Shown: one piece after another, positions 3,316 to 50,967 of the stretch
Layout of the letters: each line of letters starts with the position of its first letter
Position numbering within the stretch: position 1 is the stretch's first letter
DNA from: Streptococcus sciuri
GTDB taxonomy: Bacteria > Bacillota > Bacilli > Lactobacillales > Streptococcaceae
Assembly (NCBI RefSeq): GCF_024814375.1
Contig: NZ_JANUXX010000003.1
Coordinates: forward strand, 88,382-152,381
Direction: 5' to 3'
DNA: 64,000 nt
The notes under the pieces: generated by a model
Seen by the model: the letters and a program-made list of their open reading frames with translations, nothing else
What the model was told of the DNA's origin: nothing
Database searches by the model: none
Made by a program: the position numbers and the translations under genes

Positions 3316-5502
3316 ATGAAGAAAACAATTAAGGCAATTGTATTTGCCCTGATGGCTGTATTCATGGTTTTTGGCGAAAAAGCCAGCGCTGACACGATTT
3401 CAATCGTGTCTGATACCGCCTATGCACCGTTTGAATTTAAGGACAGTGATCAAGTTTATAAAGGAATTGATGTCGATATTATCCAAGAAGTGGCAAAGCG
3501 CTCTGGTTGGGATTATAAAATGACTTTTCCAGGATTTGATGCTGCTGTCAATGCTGTTCAATCTGGACAGGCTGATGCTCTTATGGCAGGAACTACTGTC
3601 ACAGAAGCTCGTAAAAAAGTATTTACTTTTTCTGATACTTACTACGATACTTCTATCGTTATTTATACCAAAAAAGAAAATAAAATCAGCAAGTATAGCC
3701 AACTCAAAGGAAAAACAGTTGGAGTTAAAAATGGAACTGCTGCGCAATCTTTCCTTGAAAAAAACAAATCAAAATACGGCTATACTCTCAAAACTTTTGA
3801 TACCAGCGATTTAATGAATAACAGTCTGGACTCTGGTTCTATTGATGCCGCTATGGATGATGAACCCGTCGTCAGATATGCTATCAACCAAGGAAAAGAC
3901 TATGCTATCAATATGAATGGCGAGTCTGTCGGAAGTTTTGCTTTTGGTGTAAAAAAAGGAAGTAAATACGAATACCTCATCGAAGAATTTAACACAGCAC
4001 TTGCTGCTATGAAATCAGATGGTACTTACGATCAAATTATGAGCAAGTGGTTAGAATCAGATGCTACCAAGACTAGTGCTAGTGCAACTGGAGATGCAAA
4101 TGCTAAAGCAACACCTCAAAAAACGACTTATAAAATTGTCTCAGATTCTTCTTTTGCTCCATTTGAGTACCAAAATAGCTCAAACAAATATACTGGTTTT
4201 GACATGGAGCTTATCAAAGCTATTGCTAAACAGCAAGGCTTTAACATCACTATTAGCAACCCAGGATTCGATGCTGCTCTTAATGCCGTTCAATCTGGGC
4301 AAGCAGATGGTGTTATCGCTGGAATGACCATTACTGATGCTAGAAAAGAAATCTTTACTTTCTCAGATTCTTACTATACTGCTAACATCATCTTGGCTGT
4401 CAAAAAAGGATCTTCTATCAAATCCTATGAAAATCTTAAAGGCAAAACTGTCGGTGCCAAAAATGGAACAGCTTCTTATACTTGGTTAGAACAGAATGCC
4501 AATAAATACGGTTTTAAAATCCGTGCTTTTGATGAAGCATCTTCTATGTATGATAGTCTTAATTCAGGCTCTATTGATGCTCTTATGGATGATGAAGCCG
4601 TCCTTGCTTACGCTATCAAACAAGGACGTAACTTTGAAACACCCATCAAAGGAGAAGCTTCAGGCGATATCGGTTTTGCCGTGAAAAAAGGGGCAAATCC
4701 CGAACTCGTTGAAATGTTTAATAACGGTTTAGCTGCCTTAAAGAAAAATGGACAGTATGATAAGCTCGTGAAGAAATACCTATCAACAAGTAACTCTTCT
4801 TCTAGCCAGTCATCTTCAAGCTCTACAGTCGATGAAACAACTATCTGGGGATTGCTGCAAAACAACTACAAACAGCTACTCCAAGGATTGTGGACAACGA
4901 TTAGCTTGACTCTTATCTCATTTGCTATCGCAATGATTATCGGTATTTTCTTTGGTATGCTAAGTGTGGCTCCAAATAGTGTTTTGCGTACTATCGCTGC
5001 TATATTTGTTGATGTTGTCCGTGGTATCCCACTAATGATTGTAGCTGCTTTCATTTTCTGGGGAATTCCAAATCTTATCGAGCAACTTACCGGTCACCAA
5101 AACCCAATCAACGATTTTGTTGCAGCAACTATTGCTCTTTCTCTTAATGCTGGTGCTTATATCGCTGAAATCGTCCGTGGTGGGATTGAAGCCGTACCAA
5201 AAGGGCAAATGGAAGCAAGCCGTAGCTTAGGAATTTCATACGGAAAAACCATGCGAAGGGTTATCTTACCACAAGCAGTTCGCCTTATGCTTCCTAACTT
5301 TATAAATCAATTTGTCATCTCTCTCAAAGATACAACTATCGTCTCAGCAATTGGATTGGTTGAACTCTTCCAAACAGGGAAAATCATTATCGCACGTAAC
5401 TACCAATCATTCCGCATGTATGCTATTCTAGCAATCCTTTACCTCGTGATGATTACCCTATTGACTCGCTTGGCAAAACGCTTAGAAAAGAGGCTTAACT
5501 AA
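3316..5502 (+). CDS. glnP: Glutamine-type ABC transporter: two fused substrate-binding domains plus permease
   Basis: This 728-aa fusion protein carries a signal peptide (residues 1-25, ending KASAD), two tandem periplasmic-binding-protein type 3 domains (about 27-255 and 273-490) and a C-terminal His/Glu/Gln-type permease domain with several membrane helices (about 515-728, including the conserved [16 protein letters not shown] loop). The two binding domains share near-identical segments such as [14 protein letters not shown] and [14 protein letters not shown], so they arose by duplication. A Ser-rich linker ([10 protein letters not shown]) joins the second domain to the membrane part. The start at 3316 is chosen for its AAAGGAG site. 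The stop overlaps the ATPase start by one base (TAATG). Glutamine or another polar amino acid is the expected substrate. Confidence 0.92.
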
Positions 5503-43917: not shown

Positions 43918-46900
43918 TTAATCATTCACTTTTTCCATCAACTCTGTAAAATCACTCACCACGTCATAATGACAACCCTTCTCTAGGTGACCTGCTGTCT
44001 GCAACTCTCTAAAATGTGCCTTCGCACAGTTTATCTTGTCCTTTTCCTTACCTCTCAAATCAGTTTCTTTGCTAGAACCTTTTGTCTCGGCGACAAAATA
44101 AATATGCTTGACGTGGTCTTTTTTAAAGGCTATCGCCCAGTCAGGATTGTAGTTCCCAAAAGGGGTTGGAATATGAAACCAAGTCGGCAATTTAGCATAG
44201 ACCCTGACGTCACCAGAGCTATCCAGTTGCTGTTGAAAATTTGCTTCGGTGTTTGAGTCGACTTTGACATAGTTGTAAATTGAACAATTAGCACTGAGGA
44301 CATGACTATCATAGGCAGGAAACTTGGCACGCTCAGTAGTTTGATAAAAGAGAGCACTATCGTAGTTATCGCCTGTCAGTCTATACTCGATGTCTTGTCC
44401 CATACTGATAGCTTTTTGTTCATTGATGAGACTGGCTGTTTTTCGAATAAAGTCCTCTGGGTTTTGCTTAAAGGTGTCAAACTTGCTAGGACTAATCTGT
44501 GTCAGTATCTTTGCTATTGTCTTGCGAGTGAGATTTGTTTCTTGGCTCAATCGATCAAGCAAGTCATAGCGCTCAGTGATAGGAGACGGTTGCATTTTTT
44601 CCTCAAAATGCTGCATAAGTGTCGCCTCCAGCCTATCTGTCTCTAGTCTGGTGACTTCCGTTTCTTGTACACTATAGGTCAATGGTCTGATGTAAAGACT
44701 CGTATTAATCGCCTGTATCGCATCTGTTATCAGTTTGTCTTCGTCAAGGTGAATGCGATAAACGGACTTTTGATTGATACATTTCCAGAGCTCTTTAAAG
44801 GCTTGGAATTTCTCGGTATTGACTTCATCTCTAAAAGCAAAGTCTTCTTGGTTGGCGTTTTCAACAGGGACATGCAGACTGACTTTGTCTAGCAAGTCTG
44901 CCATAGACGCTTCAAAGCCCTCTAATGCTCTGTCAAAGACTAGCTGATCTATCTCTTTTGCCACGTAGTAGCGTTCGGTGAGAAAGCCCTCTTCATCCAG
45001 ATAACCTTGTTGTGTGAGCTGATAGAGGATTTGACCTGCCAAATTCCTCTTCGATAACTAGTTCTTGTCCTGTCTCATTTCTCAAAATCTTCCTCTTTAA
45101 AAAACTAGAGCTGACTTGATAGGCTCTATCCTTGAGTTCCTCACGCAACTCTCCTTGCAAGCCTCTAGCAAAGCTATCATAACTTTCATTGGCGATGATG
45201 GTGAGCTTATTGATGTCATGGACTTTCTTGTCCCCGAGAAGTTCTGCGTCTTGGCGGTTACCATTTTGATTGACACACAGACGCATGCCTCGTCCAATCT
45301 CCTGACGTTTGCGTATTTCGGATTTGCTCTTATTGAGGGTACAAATCTGAAAGACATTGGGATTATCCCAGCCTTCTCTGAGAGCAGTATGCGAAAAGAT
45401 AAAGCGTACGGGCTCTTCAAAGGACAGCAGACGTGCCTTGTCTCGCATGATGAGGTCGTAGGCTTCCTTGTCAGAGGAGTCCTTTCCTTCCTCAGACTCT
45501 GTCTTGTAGTCGATAAGGATGGTCTTAGCAGGCCTTTTATCGACTTTTTTCTTCGAAAAGTAGCCTGCATGAACAGTACTGGAGTCTTGGTAGCGCTCCA
45601 GATAGCGATAATAAGCATCTGGCTCTTTTTTATGCTCTCGGAGATAAGAGCTGACTTGCTTGTGGTATTCCTCCTCAAAGAGAGTCGCATAGTCGCCGTT
45701 GTGCGCATGATGTTGCTCATCGTACTGCTTGTAGCGTGCGACTTGGTCGATGAAAAAGAGAGATAACACCTTGATTCCACGCTGATAAAGCATAGCTTCT
45801 TTTTGCAAGTGCGTTTTGATAGTCTCTCGTATCTGCAAGCGACGCATATCAAGATCGGCAATCTCTCCGATGACCTCACCTACAGCTAGGCGATAGCTAG
45901 CGCCTACCTGAATGCTATTGGTAAACGGTCTAGCATCAAAATCCTGCAAGGTCATCCCCTCATAGGCTGACAGCCCGCCTGATGCCTGATAGAGGTCAAA
46001 AGGAGCTGATATGAGCTTATTAACACGCTTGATACCAGACTTTGTCCTCCTCTCAAACTCTATTCTCGCTTTTGGGGCACCTGTTGGCTGAGGGATGATC
46101 GCTTGCAGATAGAGGTAGCCTGTCGTTCCCGTGCTTGTGGTCTGTGCAATACTTTTGACCGCTATCTTTTTGACCAAGTGCTTGTTATAAGCATCCATAG
46201 CGTCTAGGCGGTAGAGCATGTCGTGCTTTTCCTTATGCGTAGCTGAGTAACGCAAGGTAAATAGGGGCTTGAAGTCTCGTAGATTCTTTTTGGTTTGCTC
46301 CCCCTCAACAGACTGTGGCTCGTCGATGATAAGGATCGGCCTCGTCTTTGCGATGATCTCCATCGGCACTTGATTGCGGATGCTCTCGTGTGCTTTGTAT
46401 ATCCGCTTGGTGCGTGTGCTAAAGGCTTGGCTATTGATAATCATGACCTCAATGTCGGCACTTGTGGCAAAGTTGTCAACAGCGGTGATAGTGTTAGAGT
46501 CATAGACAAAGCTCCGTGGGCTCTTGCCATAGTAAAGGCGAAAATGATCGCGCATAGCCTCAAAGGACGTCCATACCCCCTCACGAATAGCAACACTCGG
46601 CACAACGATGACAAACTTGAGCCAGCCATAGCGTTTATTAAGCTCCATGATGGTACGGATATAGGTATAGGTCTTGCCTGTGCCTGTCTCCATCTCGATG
46701 GAGAAGTTATAGCTGTCTCTACCGTCAAACTGACTGATAGAGAGGGAGCTTGATGGAGGGAGGTGATGATTGATTTGGGTTTGTTGGACACGCTTTTGGA
46801 TAGTCTCCTTTCCCAGTCTGATGGGAGCGTTGAGGTGATAGGCGAGCAAGTCCTCTCGCTGTGTGATTTCGGTCAGCTCTTTTTGTCCCTCAAAGAGGTC

Positions 46901-46957
46901 GCAGACACTAGAGACCGCCTCTAGTTGAAAGTCCTGCTCTTTAAACTGTAGTTTCAT
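43918..46957 (-). pseudogene. res: Type III restriction enzyme (Res), frameshifted
   Basis: The N-terminal frame (to 44993) has superfamily 2 helicase motifs: [11 protein letters not shown] near 95 (Walker A), IIDEPQSVEG (DEPQ box) and EIGRGMRLCV (motif VI). The C-terminal frame (from about 45042 to 43918) carries the nuclease site NPDWAIAFKK...VAETKGSS (PD-ExK). In the first frame EEEFG runs on to a stop after 16 foreign codons; the other frame continues directly with GQILYQLTQQGYLDEEG. The total of 3040 bases is one more than a multiple of three, so one extra base (probably a G at the CC of 45039-45040) splits a normal protein of about 1012 residues. The helicase half lacks the nuclease, so restriction should be lost. 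Confidence 0.88.
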
Positions 46958-47117
46958 GGGCTACCTCGTTTATCTTACTCCTTTTACACTTTTTGTAGCG
47001 TGAACACATGATGCTAATCGCCTTGTGGAGGGCGATGATGTCTGTCATGAGCTGATAAAAGCTGACCTTATCCAGCTCTATTGCGGATAAAGGTTGGGTA
47101 TTGTAAGTGTTTACCAT
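46941..47117 (-). CDS. Small ORF between mod and res, 58 aa, unknown
   Basis: The frame starts MVNTYNTQPLSAIELDKVS behind an AAAGGAG site 7 bases upstream and ends 17 bases inside the res start, implying coupled translation. The product has a central hydrophobic helix (FYQLMTDIIALHKAI) and a basic Cys-containing tail (CSRYKKCKRSK). I do not recognise it. Its position between mod and res, a good ribosome site and the overlap argue that it is real. Confidence 0.5.
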   Translation of the reverse strand: MVNTYNTQPLSAIELDKVSFYQLMTDIIALHKAISIMCSRYKKCKRSKINEVAHETTV

Positions 47118-47155: not shown

Positions 47156-49200
47156 TTACACCACCTTGACTTGTGTTTCTGGGCTGAGTTCTTTGAAGAT
47201 TTGGATAAGGTTGATTTTATCGGAGGAGTTGGCAAAGCTAGCATCCCAAAAGACGGCACGCTCTGGCTGCGCCTTTGCGACTGATCGGATAGTGTCTTCT
47301 CCGATGACCTCGTCAAAGCAGGCGATGAGTTCGCCATCAGCGACGGTATAGATGGTGTTATCCCCCTGCTTTTGCTGGGTGATGGCTAGGGAGAGCTGGC
47401 TGCCCCAAGAGAGCATGACCTGAAAGAGGAGGTCAAGGGCACTAGTTCCCTCACGGAGATGATTCACACTAGCCAGCAAGTCGCCCTGCACGGTATCGCC
47501 AGGTGTCAAAGCTACGTCTCGGAAATTAGACTCTGCTAGCCTAAAGGCACGAAAACCAAGGTCAAGGCTGTCAGCCTTATCTGCTTGCTCGGTACGAATC
47601 TTATTCGCTGCACGTCTGATGCGCTCACGCGCAATCTGATCAATGGTATCAAAGCCTGCTTTTTTAGCAGCGGAGCTTTCCGCCACCTCGTCTAGAGTAC
47701 AAAGGATATACTTTCGCTTACCTCCATCCTCGGCATTCAACTGCATCACCGCATCTGCCGTGGTCGCTGAACCAGCGAAGAAGTCCATAAATAATGAGTC
47801 ATTTTCAAATATGCTCAGTATTCTACTCATAAATGTCAGTTGCTTCGGATTATCAAAATCCAGTCCAAAATCTTTTAACCGCTTGTTGTCTGGACGTTGG
47901 TCATCACTCATAATTGATTTAGGCCTTTGCTTTGAATTTTCATCCAAATATCTTTTTATCCTAGGTAGACTCCCATCAGTATGAAAGTGTATTCTGTTAT
48001 CGTTTATTAACTCCAATAATTTTTCTGTTTTATATCTAAATCCTCCAGGAGGGACAGGATCTTCCTTGTTTGTTAATGGATTGATAATTGGTTGCATACT
48101 CCCATTTTTCACTCCACCTAAGTCACCTTTCATATATACTCCCCTTTTATCAACATACCAATAATTTGTAAAATCAATAAATCTCGGATATTTTGTTAAT
48201 TCTTTTAACTCTGCTGTAATCTCATCAGATGAAAGCCCCATTTTTTGTAACTTAACTATTCTTTTTTTATACTCAGCTATATTATTTTTATTTACTTCCC
48301 ATTTATTTCCAGCATGCTTTTGATTCAATGAAAGAATATCTTTTGAATAGACTAAACAATATTCGTGACTTACGGAAATATACAAACTTTGATTTTTAGA
48401 ACTGTTTGTATTTCTAGTTATGCTTGCAATAAAATTCTCCTGTCCAAACACTTCATCGCAGACTTGTTTGAGGTTGGCTTGTTCATTGTCATCAATGGAG
48501 ATAAAGATCACGCCACTGTCCTTGAGGAGGTTGCGAGCAAGCAGAAGCCTAGGATAGATCATGTTGAGCCAATCGCTGTGATAGCGTGAGTTGGTCTTGG
48601 TATTTTTTCTGAGACGCTGTCCCTTCTCATCGAGATTGCCTTCGCGTGCGTCTTGCTCCGCTTTTGTCTGATGATAGTTGTCCCGATAGACGAGATCATC
48701 ACCCCTATTGTAGGGTGGGTCGATATAGATCATATCCACCGCTCCCAGATAGGACTCTTGGAGGATTTTCAAAACCTCCAGATTGTCACCTGTGATAAAG
48801 ACGTTTTCACTCCCTTCAAAGTTCACACTCTCATCAAGGTCAGGGCGTAAGGTCTTGGTCGTGCGGCGACCAGCTTGGCGCAAGGAAGAAGTCTTGCCCA
48901 CCCAGCGAAACTCATAGGTCTCAGGGCTAGTCGCTAGAGTCGGTGCGAGAAAGTCTCGCAGTCTCTCAAAGTCCACGCTCCGACGCAAAAAGCCGTCCTC
49001 TCCCCTGTCCTCTGTCAGACATGTAGGAAAAAGACGACCAATCTGCTCTATCAACTGCTCACGCAAGCACACTGAAGACAGGTCTAGCTTGTCAAGACCT
49101 GTGTAGGTGCCTACTTTTCGTTCGTTCGTTCGTTCGTTCGTTCGTTCGTTCGTTCGTTCGTTCGTTCGTTCGTTCGTTCGTTCGTTCGTTCGTTGCTCAT
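47156..49200 (-). CDS. mod: Type III DNA methyltransferase (Mod), phase-variable, OFF in this sequence
   Basis: This is an N6-adenine methyltransferase of the beta class: catalytic DPPYNRGDDL, the upstream FITGDNLEVLK, and the SAM motif MDFFAGSATTADAV in the C-terminal half. A less conserved middle (about 48440-47810) is the target-recognition region. The natural start is ATG at 49200, with AAAGGAG 9 bases upstream. It enters a tract of 19 CGAA units (49192-49117). From that ATG the frame meets TAG right after the tract; with 20 (or 17, 23) units it joins the long frame and gives about 682 residues starting with repeated N-E-R-T. With 19 units only a weak GTG at 49072 could start the frame, so the gene is in the OFF state. 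Confidence 0.9.
49117..49192. repeat. Tetranucleotide tract (TTCG)19 in the mod 5' coding region
   Basis: There are nineteen exact TTCG units on the plus strand (CGAA on the coding strand), 76 bases in all, starting 8 bases after the mod ATG. Changing the unit number by slipped-strand mispairing moves mod in and out of frame. Confidence 0.97.
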
Positions 49201-49265
49201 GGTATCATCTCCTTTGTTGTGTTGTCAAGAGGTCACATTCATTTTATCATATTTTGACCTAAAAG

Positions 49266-49294
49266 AAAAACAGCTGTTGACTCAACAGACTGTT
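49266..49294 (-). terminator. rlmN terminator
   Basis: ACAG-(T)-CTGTTGA and TCAACAGCTGT form a strong hairpin followed by TTTTTC on the minus strand. It separates rlmN from mod. Confidence 0.85.
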
Positions 49295-49301
49295 TGCGTG
49301 C

Positions 49302-50387
49302 TTACTGCTTCTTTGCTAGCCTTGCTTTTTGGCGGTCACGCTTCATGGTATTGGAGCGTAGCTGTCCACAGGCTGCATCGATATCTGTCCCATGCTCCTG
49401 ACGTACGACACAATTGACACCGTTTTTCTTGAGCACATCATAGAAAGCATCAACACGCTCCTTTGGACTGCGGCTATACTGGTCATGTTCACTGACAGGG
49501 TTGTAGGGGATGAGATTAACATAGGAGAGCTTACGGATGTTCTTGGTCAGATCTGCTAGCTCTTGTGCTTGCTCGATATTATCATTGACCTGATTGAGCA
49601 TGATATACTCAAAGGTCACACGCCGATTGGTTCTCTCGATGTAGTAAGAGATAGCATCAAAGAGCTTTTCTAGTGGAAATGATCGATTGATGCGCATGAT
49701 ACTAGATCGTAGGTCATTGTTTGGCGCGTGCAATGACACTGCTAAATTTACTTGAATCCCTTCATTAGCAAAGTCACGAATCTTGTGCGCAAGCCCTGAC
49801 GTTGACACCGTGATATGACGAGCACCGATAGCCAGACCGTTATCATCATTGATGGTTCGTAAAAAGGTCATGACATTATCATAGTTATCAAAAGGCTCTC
49901 CGATACCCATGACGACCACATGACTGACACGCTCATCTTGACCACGCTCATCAAAATAGCGTTGCACGAGCATGATTTGGGCAGTGATTTCACCACTGTT
50001 GAGATCACGTTGTTTTTTAATCAAGCCACTCGCACAAAAAGTACAGCCGATATTGCAGCCGACCTGTGTCGTCACGCAGACAGACAGACCATAGTGCTGA
50101 CGCATAAGCACCGTCTCAATTAACATACCATCTGGCAATTCAAAAAGGTACTTGACCGTACCATCAAAAGACTCCTGCACGATGCGTTGCTTTAGAGGAT
50201 TGACACAAAAATTATCCTTTAAAAGAGCGATAAAGTCCTTTGAGATATTGGTCATCTCATCAAAAGACTGGATACGCTTACGGTACAGCCAATCCCAAAT
50301 CTGCCCAGCTCTAAACTTCTTTTCACCGTGCGCTATCGCCCACTCAATCAGCTCATCTCGTGTTAAACTATAAATCGATGGTTTCAT
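49302..50387 (-). CDS. rlmN: 23S rRNA (adenine-2503-C2) methyltransferase
   Basis: RlmN is a radical-SAM enzyme that methylates A2503 in 23S rRNA and A37 in some tRNAs. The 361-aa protein has the cluster motif [11 protein letters not shown] near residue 108 (CxxxCxxC), [10 protein letters not shown] and the C-terminal catalytic Cys in DIDAACGQL. The start MKPSIYSL is chosen because it matches the family and leaves the upstream region non-homologous. It lies 37 bases after yutD. Confidence 0.96.
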
Positions 50388-50424
50388 ATCATTCTCAAGC
50401 AACTTGACGTTGCTCTCCTCCTTT

Positions 50425-50967
50425 TTATCTCTCTTTCTTGCGAATGACAAACTGCGCTCTAGCATCCTTTATCGCACGCTCTTCCTGGCGACGTCTACGC
50501 TTATTGTCTCGGCGGATACTATCCGTTCGTTTCCTATCCTTAAAGTGATAATTTTGCCGCTCCTTTTTGGTCGTTTTCGTTTTCTTTTTACTGAAAATCT
50601 CTTCTTCAAAAAAGATTTCCTGTGGTGCTGGATTTTCTAAGATAAAATAGGCGCAGCCAAAGCTACAATATTCATTGAGGTAATCCTCAAGTCTTGTGAT
50701 ACTTTTATCTTCTTTACCTTTTTTGACGTCCTTATAAAAACCACGCAAACGCAACTGCTCATTACTCCAGTCGCCAACGATATAGTCATATTTGAGAAGC
50801 ACTTCTGAAAAGCGTTGCGTAAACTTTATCACATCAAAGGCTGATTTTTCATTGACAGTCAAGGTAAATTGGTAGTCATCACTCCATACCTTATCATCTA
50901 CTAGCATAAACTGTGGACCAGGAAACCGATTGTAATTGTACATCTCTGCTGAAATTTCCTTACGCAT
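50425..50967 (-). CDS. YutD family protein (DUF1027)
   Basis: This 180-aa protein starts [13 protein letters not shown] behind a GGAGAGGAG site. The conserved part (residues 1-120) contains [47 protein letters not shown] and the [10 protein letters not shown] end, as in B. subtilis YutD (PF06265). The C-terminal third is a low-complexity basic tail rich in Lys and Arg, likely nucleic-acid binding. It sits directly upstream of rlmN, as in other streptococci. Its function is unknown. Confidence 0.88.

What the first reader, a model, noticed from the sequence alone, without database searches (positions are those of the whole stretch)
49117..49200. Phase-variable type III methyltransferase, OFF by one repeat unit
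The only ATG with a good ribosome site (49200) leads into 19 exact CGAA units. From it the frame ends at TAG straight after the tract, while the 638-codon methyltransferase frame lies open in another phase, with no stop between tract and conserved domains. Arithmetic: 128 bases from the ATG to the first codon of the recognised frame at 49072 leaves remainder 2, and each unit adds 4, so 20 units gives ON, 19 and 18 give OFF. ON protein would start with N-E-R-T repeats. Phase-variable type III mod genes (phasevarions) are known in other species, including S. suis; whether this tract and allele are described I cannot tell.
Basis: partly seen in the sequence, partly recalled or inferred. Interest (0 to 1): 0.85.

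Follow-up and report, generated by a model that had tools for sequence, protein, structure and literature searches.

The report
Repeat-length switch on Streptococcus DNA methylase
A DNA-methylating enzyme gene of a Streptococcus carries 19 exact copies of CGAA right after its start codon and reads out of frame, so gain or loss of copies would likely switch the enzyme on and off; a likely sister species has a different four-base repeat at the same spot, so the switch seems to have been kept while its repeat was replaced.

Summary
Nineteen exact CGAA units (49192-49117, minus strand) follow an ATG (49200) with a Shine-Dalgarno. From that ATG the frame ends after 29 codons; 17 or 20 units would give 678- or 682-residue Mod. 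The mod frame has no start-type codon between 49204 and 49082, although its last part holds conserved Mod sequence. The gene is a type III Mod with an exchanged recognition domain, laid out like S. suis ModS: a new member of a known kind. New: CGAA x5 occurs in 1 of 284 Streptococcus species genomes. A likely sister species has mod-res at the orthologous site with AAGA x13. Other relatives have AGCAC, GAGCA, AGAAC or poly-G: the switch persists, the unit turns over. Res is split into two frames here, but whole in 14 of 15 named relatives, the other being cut, and in the sister. In passing, two further mods of this genome carry repeats; in one family the repeat lies in a short upstream ORF that in one phase of three ends on the mod start. 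Switching, methylation and regulon are untested.

The parts
49274..49288 (-). Terminator-like hairpin with T tail after rlmN; separates rlmN (49302-50465) from mod
   Evidence: 1 found, 0.6 expected in shuffles, so weak on its own
49241..49249 (-). Extended -10-like TGATAAAAT upstream of the ATG; would start the message about 34 bases 5' of the ATG (inferred)
   Evidence: read by eye from the sequence, not reported by the scan; the sister locus L169 has TGGTAAAAT at the same place
49199..49228 (-). TTGACA-18-TACCAT, promoter-like, overlapping the start codon; conserved with tract-bearing relatives
   Evidence: 2 promoter-like sites found on both strands, 0.3 expected; 19 of 19 loci with 4-5 base units, window included; L061 has TTGTCA
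49209..49215 (-). Shine-Dalgarno AAAGGAG
   Evidence: sequence
49198..49200 (-). ATG start codon
   Evidence: same context ACCATGAGC in ModS-type relatives
49117..49192 (-). Switching tract, 19 exact CGAA units
49111..49113 (-). TAG that ends the 29-codon OFF frame at 19 units
48985..49114 (-). Conserved Mod N-terminus in the mod frame, from directly after the tract; no start codon upstream of it in that frame
47156..49204 (-). mod frame, open; type III DNA methyltransferase, N6-adenine by family (DPPY 48721-48710, FFAGS 47782-47768)
47785..48424 (-). Target-recognition domain, exchanged cassette: no DNA match to the likely sister species, low GC
43918..46957 (-). res, split into two overlapping frames (46957-44993 and 45042-43918); one ORF in relatives

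Best explanation
Nineteen CGAA units lie between the start codon and the body of a type III DNA methyltransferase gene and put it out of frame, so the gene is predicted to be OFF in this assembly, and slipped-strand gain or loss of units would likely turn it ON and OFF. Shown here: the tract, the frames, the lack of any other start at the conserved N-terminus, the conserved protein sequence up to the tract edge, and the homologous frame-breaking tracts in relatives. Inferred: slippage in vivo, expression at 17, 20, 23 ... units, and N6-adenine methylation at a motif set by the exchanged recognition domain. Also inferred: a phase-variable regulon. With Res split, a Mod made in the ON state would likely act without its own restriction enzyme, that is as a regulator rather than a defence.
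For: Frames. No start-type codon in the mod frame from 49204 to 49082. The 33 codons after the tract are conserved with the likely sister species in the mod frame, with differences by codon position 7, 5 and 13, so they are likely translated and need a start at or before the tract. Type III Mod profile 4.1e-197; EcoP15I Mod structure 6.2e-65. Tracts just after the start in 20 relatives with a visible start, window excluded: AGCAC 14, AGAAC 2, poly-G 2 (about ten codons in), GAGCA 1, AAGA 1; 5 of 21 in frame with the window counted. Orthologous site in the likely sister species, between rlmN and the dehydrogenase gene, with AAGA x13. S. suis ModS, same layout: protein and methylation only at in-frame tract lengths (PMC8125046 passages); GAGCA x6 in frame in LSS66 (PMC6265453 passage).
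Against: No second genome with this tract was found, so CGAA length variation is not shown. All 11 Mod proteins (542-638 aa) of the cluster that contains S. hyointestinalis, as listed, begin at internal codons and none with a repeat peptide: 0 of 11 look ON where a third would be expected; gene-calling on draft contigs may explain part of it. Against the more distant L104 the codon-position pattern is not informative (18, 11, 18). A promoter-like TTGACA-18-TACCAT overlaps the ATG and is conserved; if it were the only promoter the message would lack the ATG. The unit count comes from a draft assembly of 21 contigs.
Confidence: 0.88

Rival explanations
1. The methyltransferase is made all the time from an internal start (GTG 49072 or TTG 49066), and the repeat is a passenger upstream.
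For: GTG 49072 opens the 638-residue ORF; a promoter-like element overlaps the ATG; databases give 11 of 11 close cluster members from internal starts.
Against: No Shine-Dalgarno before these codons; protein sequence upstream of GTG 49072 is conserved in the mod frame (VG..TGL.KLDLSS); S. suis ModS protein is absent at out-of-frame lengths (PMC8125046 passages).
Confidence: 0.06
2. The gene is a decaying pseudogene: Mod stuck out of frame, Res split.
For: Res is two frames here and one ORF of 1026-1050 codons in 14 of 15 named relatives, the other being cut by its contig end, and of 1016 in the likely sister species; the ORF between mod and res has 58 codons here and 250 in that species.
Against: The mod frame is intact over 638 codons with DPPY and FFAGS motifs; the tract is perfect; frame-breaking repeats of non-triplet unit recur at the same place in relatives. 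Loss of Res with an intact Mod fits a Mod kept for regulation.
Confidence: 0.06
3. The repeat acts on transcription (promoter spacing or initially transcribed sequence) rather than on the reading frame.
For: TTGACA (TTGTCA in L061), 16-18 bases and TACCAT or TATAAT directly before the tract in 19 of 19 loci with 4-5 base units, in 0 of 2 with poly-G and in 1 of 6 without tract.
Against: No unit found at this place is a multiple of three; in-frame rule shown in S. suis (PMC8125046 passages); an upstream extended -10 shared with the likely sister species could transcribe the ATG.
Confidence: 0.05

Closest known systems
ModS of Streptococcus suis (GAGCA(n) type III mod; PMC6265453, PMC8125046)
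   Same: Same Mod family (50-71% identity in each flanking segment to three S. suis loci L007, L008, L033), tract right after ATGAGC or ATG in the same context, exchanged recognition domain, two OFF phases and one ON
   Different: Unit CGAA (4) not GAGCA or AGCAC (5); different surroundings (no rlmN match in the held flanks of 15 named relatives); Res split here; switching not shown. Whether L007, L008 and L033 are ModS1, 2 or 3 is not known
Type III mod of the likely sister species (G227 = L138/L169, likely S. hyointestinalis)
   Same: Orthologous site between rlmN and the dehydrogenase gene, Mod 71% identical over the first 240 residues, frame-breaking tetranucleotide after the start
   Different: Unit AAGA x13, different recognition domain, Res in one ORF (1016 codons), ORFs of 578 and 580 codons (ABC-transporter-like by eye, not searched) between rlmN and mod
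ModA, ModB, ModD of Neisseria, ModA of Haemophilus, ModM of Moraxella (recalled, plus search listings)
   Same: Tetra- or pentanucleotide tract in the mod coding region; exchanged recognition domains
   Different: Other genera and other units; not compared by sequence here

Membership tests
Type III methyltransferase (Mod) | N6/N4 DNA methylase domain with DPPY before FxGxG-like motif, type III profile | tested here: met
   PF01555 9.8e-28; PADLOC MTase_III 4.1e-197; DPPY 118-121, FFAGS 431-435
Type III methyltransferase (Mod) | Adjacent res with helicase and PD-ExK nuclease | tested here: inconclusive
   Both halves match REase_III and keep TGTGKT, DEPQ, NPDW and ETKG, but in two frames
SSR phase-variable mod (phasevarion controller) | Non-triplet tandem repeat between start codon and domains that shifts the frame | tested here: met
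SSR phase-variable mod (phasevarion controller) | Tract length varies between isolates or cells | not testable with these tools
   one genome with this tract found; length and phase vary among relatives
SSR phase-variable mod (phasevarion controller) | Methylation and regulon change with phase | not testable with these tools
   needs methylomes and RNA-seq
ModS of Streptococcus suis | High identity of flanks between alleles of one gene (>95% DNA in S. suis, PMC6265453 passage) | tested here: not met
   flank segments 50-71% protein identity to three S. suis loci, 45-79% to 15 named streptococcal loci; so a homologue that works like ModS, not a ModS allele
Mod allele family with exchanged recognition domain | Conserved flanks, unrelated central domain shared with other lineages | tested here: met

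The most novel reading that the evidence does not exclude
This genome runs three independent repeat-driven methylation switches with units of 4, 5 and 7 bases: CGAA x19 and AAGAG x5 inside two mod genes, and TCATCAG x3 in a short ORF ahead of a third. All three are in an OFF phase in this assembly, so up to eight methylation states. The third belongs to a streptococcal family with a new kind of switch: the repeat sets the frame of a leader ORF which, in one phase of three, ends on the TAATG of mod and opens a hairpin over its ribosome site. At the mod of this window the repeat unit itself is replaced between sister species while the switch is kept.
Probability: 0.4. Interest if true: 0.8.

Novelty: new member of a known kind. 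Interest (0 to 1): 0.52.

Why it matters
It extends repeat-switched methylation to a Streptococcus near S. hyointestinalis for which my searches found no such report. It also suggests that the switch is conserved as a function, not as a sequence: the N-terminal edge of this mod carries CGAA, AAGA, AGCAC, GAGCA, AGAAC or poly-G in different species, none a multiple of three. That gives a natural series for asking how repeat unit and length set switching rates. With Res split and Mod kept, it is also a clean case for a type III Mod kept as a regulator. The leader-ORF family found beside it would be a switch that needs no repeat inside the switched gene, and annotation by ORF scanning would miss it.

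Tried and rejected
Considered and rejected: an internal start as the main start (conserved in-frame codons upstream, no Shine-Dalgarno); a pseudogene (intact mod frame); a purely transcriptional role of the tract (units not multiples of three; the S. suis data).

Led nowhere: Atack et al. 2018 survey of type III SSRs (PMC5909438) is not held, so whether CGAA is listed there is unknown to me. No paper was found on a S. hyointestinalis restriction-modification system (0 papers; 1 unrelated). One search joined Glaesserella, phase-variable and type III (0 papers). The methylation motif of this recognition domain could not be named: P0002-P0004, P0016, P0056 and P0099 share the domain but nothing I saw gives their motif. 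Whether it equals ModS1, 2 or 3 could not be checked, as those sequences were not at hand. No structure was predicted.

Rows left out of counts: L005 and L113 (contig begins inside the tract; L113 is nearer to the second mod family of L100); P0248 (375-residue piece). In one search, L144 has no visible leader start and L141 no scored start; L146, which has no tract, and the 11 loci without an N-terminal match were not carried into. In some searches L142 was left out as the same as L143 after the tract; L144 was trimmed by six bases.

Full report
The observation. On the minus strand an ATG (49200) with AAAGGAG eight bases upstream is followed by AGCAA and nineteen exact CGAA units, 49192-49117. 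From the ATG the frame stops at TAG 49113-49111 after 29 codons. The frame lengths are 678 aa with 17 units, 34 with 18, 29 with 19, 682 with 20 and 38 with 21. The tract is the only simple repeat found in the window at the thresholds, and the only CGAA x4 place in the genome, with no hit for the backwards control. Five CGAA units in a row occur in 1 of 284 Streptococcus species genomes, which is this one (the backwards control hits 2 of 284).

Why the frame matters. The mod frame is open from 49204 to 47156. Between 49204 and 49082 it has none of ATG, GTG, TTG, CTG, ATT, ATA or ATC. The codons right after the tract are nevertheless conserved Mod sequence in that frame. Against the likely sister species, 33 codons differ 7, 5 and 13 times at codon positions 1, 2 and 3; against the more distant L104 the counts are 18, 11 and 18, which decide nothing. 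Translation likely comes through the tract, and at 19 units it cannot do so from the ATG. This follows from the sequence; expression is not shown.

What the gene is. The 638 codons give N6_N4_Mtase (9.8e-28), PADLOC MTase_III (4.1e-197) and the EcoP15I modification subunit among solved structures (6.2e-65). DPPY comes before FFAGS. The downstream res has the type III profile in two pieces, 46957-44993 and 45042-43918, in different frames. It is a single ORF of 1026-1050 codons in 14 of 15 named relatives, the fifteenth (L010) being cut by its contig end, and has 1016 codons in the likely sister species. The break is not at a simple repeat found by the scan. The split may be real or an assembly error; if real, Mod stands without its nuclease.

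Recognition domain. In four segments over residues 206-410 the Mod is 0-44% identical to 15 named streptococcal loci, while all six flanking segments are 45-79%. The same four segments are 58-87% identical to P0002-P0004 (P0003 and P0004 named S. suis), P0056 (named Flavonifractor) and P0099 (Glaesserella parasuis). In 40-residue segments P0016 (Gemella) has 57-82% from 201 to 400, and P0099 47-80%. The domain has 31% GC against 50% on both sides. DNA similarity to the likely sister species stops at about 48424 and resumes at about 47785. So the domain is an exchanged cassette, as in known mod allele families. Among the 120 proteins listed (542-638 aa; 4 named S. hyointestinalis) match the Mod of L169 at near 90-100% in most flanking segments and at 2-60% in the five segments over the domain. 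The motif is unknown.

Relatives and their tracts. I examined 28 loci and the window, duplicates removed, taken; this is a sample, not all of the 51 of 197 genomes with any match, many of which are distant methylases. In 21 of 29 a tract and its start are visible: AGCAC 14, AGAAC 2, poly-G 2, GAGCA 1, AAGA 1, CGAA 1. Six of 29 have no tract, and 2 of 29 begin inside it. Of the 21, 5 are in frame and 16 out, close to chance for three phases. One of the 16 (L063) has a mod in pieces. Among 12 same-genus genomes drawn as relatives of the window, 1 has a strong match (G006) and 1 a weak one (G004), so the gene is patchy. The databases give no ON form among the 11 proteins (a third would be expected); I count this against the reading.

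The likely sister species. The window's SepM is 85% identical to one named S. hyointestinalis. Genome G227 has a SepM 99.4% identical to that protein, so it likely belongs to that species. G227 has mod-res at the same place, with rlmN on one side (96% over 254 residues) and the dehydrogenase gene on the other (82%); ORFs of 578 and 580 codons, ABC-transporter-like by eye, lie between rlmN and mod. Its tract is AAGA x13, out of frame. The same switch position thus holds different tetranucleotides in two close species.

Promoter. Two readings exist. TTGACA-18-TACCAT overlaps the ATG, and the like (16-18 bases; TTGTCA in L061; TATAAT in L138) is found in 19 of 19 loci with 4-5 base units, 0 of 2 with poly-G and 1 of 6 without tract. 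Taken alone it would start the message inside the tract. An extended -10, TGATAAAAT (49249-49241), seen by eye and matched by TGGTAAAAT in the sister locus, would start it about 34 bases before the ATG. The S. suis data (passages of PMC8125046) show that the ATG frame decides there. I leave the overlap unexplained.

Comparison with what is known. S. suis ModS has a GAGCA tract with protein and methylation only in one of three consecutive lengths (PMC8125046 passages). Its alleles have >95% identical flanks and different recognition domains (PMC6265453 passages). The window gene works by the same layout but fails the identity that makes alleles of one gene, so I call it a homologue. About 17.4% of type III mods in REBASE carry SSRs (PMC7394358 passage). 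The survey behind that number is not held, so I cannot say whether a CGAA streptococcal mod is listed. Searches for print on S. hyointestinalis restriction-modification gave nothing.

More switches in the same genome. A second mod (L100, 671 aa, with a 960-aa res) has AAGAG x5 after AAAGGAGG and GTG; it is in frame at 3 or 6 units and out at 5. A third (L101 = L139, 539 aa) has TCATCAG x3 ahead of it. Of 12 leaders of its family with an N-terminal match, 11 have tracts, of 4, 5, 7 or 8 bases. In 9 of 9 leaders with a scored upstream start, one of three phases ends the leader ORF on the TAATG of mod; the other phases stop just after the tract, apart from one phase in L142, L143 and L145 that runs on to +8. 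As assembled, 1 of 9 (L148) is in the coupled phase. In 10 of 10 leaders taken further the TAATG frame is open after the tract, and in 7 of 10 both other frames are closed more than 40 bases before it; single-base shuffles give 18-30% and about 5-7% per leader. The leaders are related, so these are not independent. A hairpin over the G-rich site before TAATG is conserved, with 4 of 19 pairs changed on both sides and kept in at least one sequence. This looks like a repeat-framed leader ORF coupled to mod. One full-text search for such a mechanism gave 3 papers, none on it by title and abstract (listing only).

Verdict. It is a new member of a known kind with a repeat unit found nowhere else in the genus sample. 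The broader points, unit turnover at a kept switch and a leader-ORF switch next door, raise its interest.

Noticed in passing
L101:3636-5255 with tract 5327-5347 (G000:C18); relatives L140-L150: Second mod family whose repeats (4, 5, 7, 8 bases) lie in an upstream ORF; one phase in three ends on TAATG of mod, with a conserved hairpin over its ribosome site. Possibly a new kind of phase variation.
   Followed up: partly
L100:3526-5582 (G000:C18): Another type III mod of the same genome with AAGAG x5 after a GTG start, out of frame at 5 units; a 960-codon res beside it.
   Followed up: partly
L102:3140-5071 and L103:3758-5716 (G000:C2, C17): Two more type II/III-like methylases without repeats at the thresholds: five such genes seen in a 1.69 Mb genome.
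   Followed up: no
L052 (9 G) and L053 (10 G): Homologous mods with a poly-G run about ten codons after the start, one out of frame and one in frame; L053 lies on a contig of the same length as one behind a protein named S. pneumoniae.
   Followed up: no
window 46941-47117: ORF between mod and res with 58 codons, 250 codons in the likely sister species.
   Followed up: no
window 49199-49228: TTGACA-18-TACCAT overlapping the ATG, conserved with tract-bearing relatives; unexplained.
   Followed up: partly
L063 (G022): GAGCA x36 ahead of a mod in pieces.
   Followed up: no
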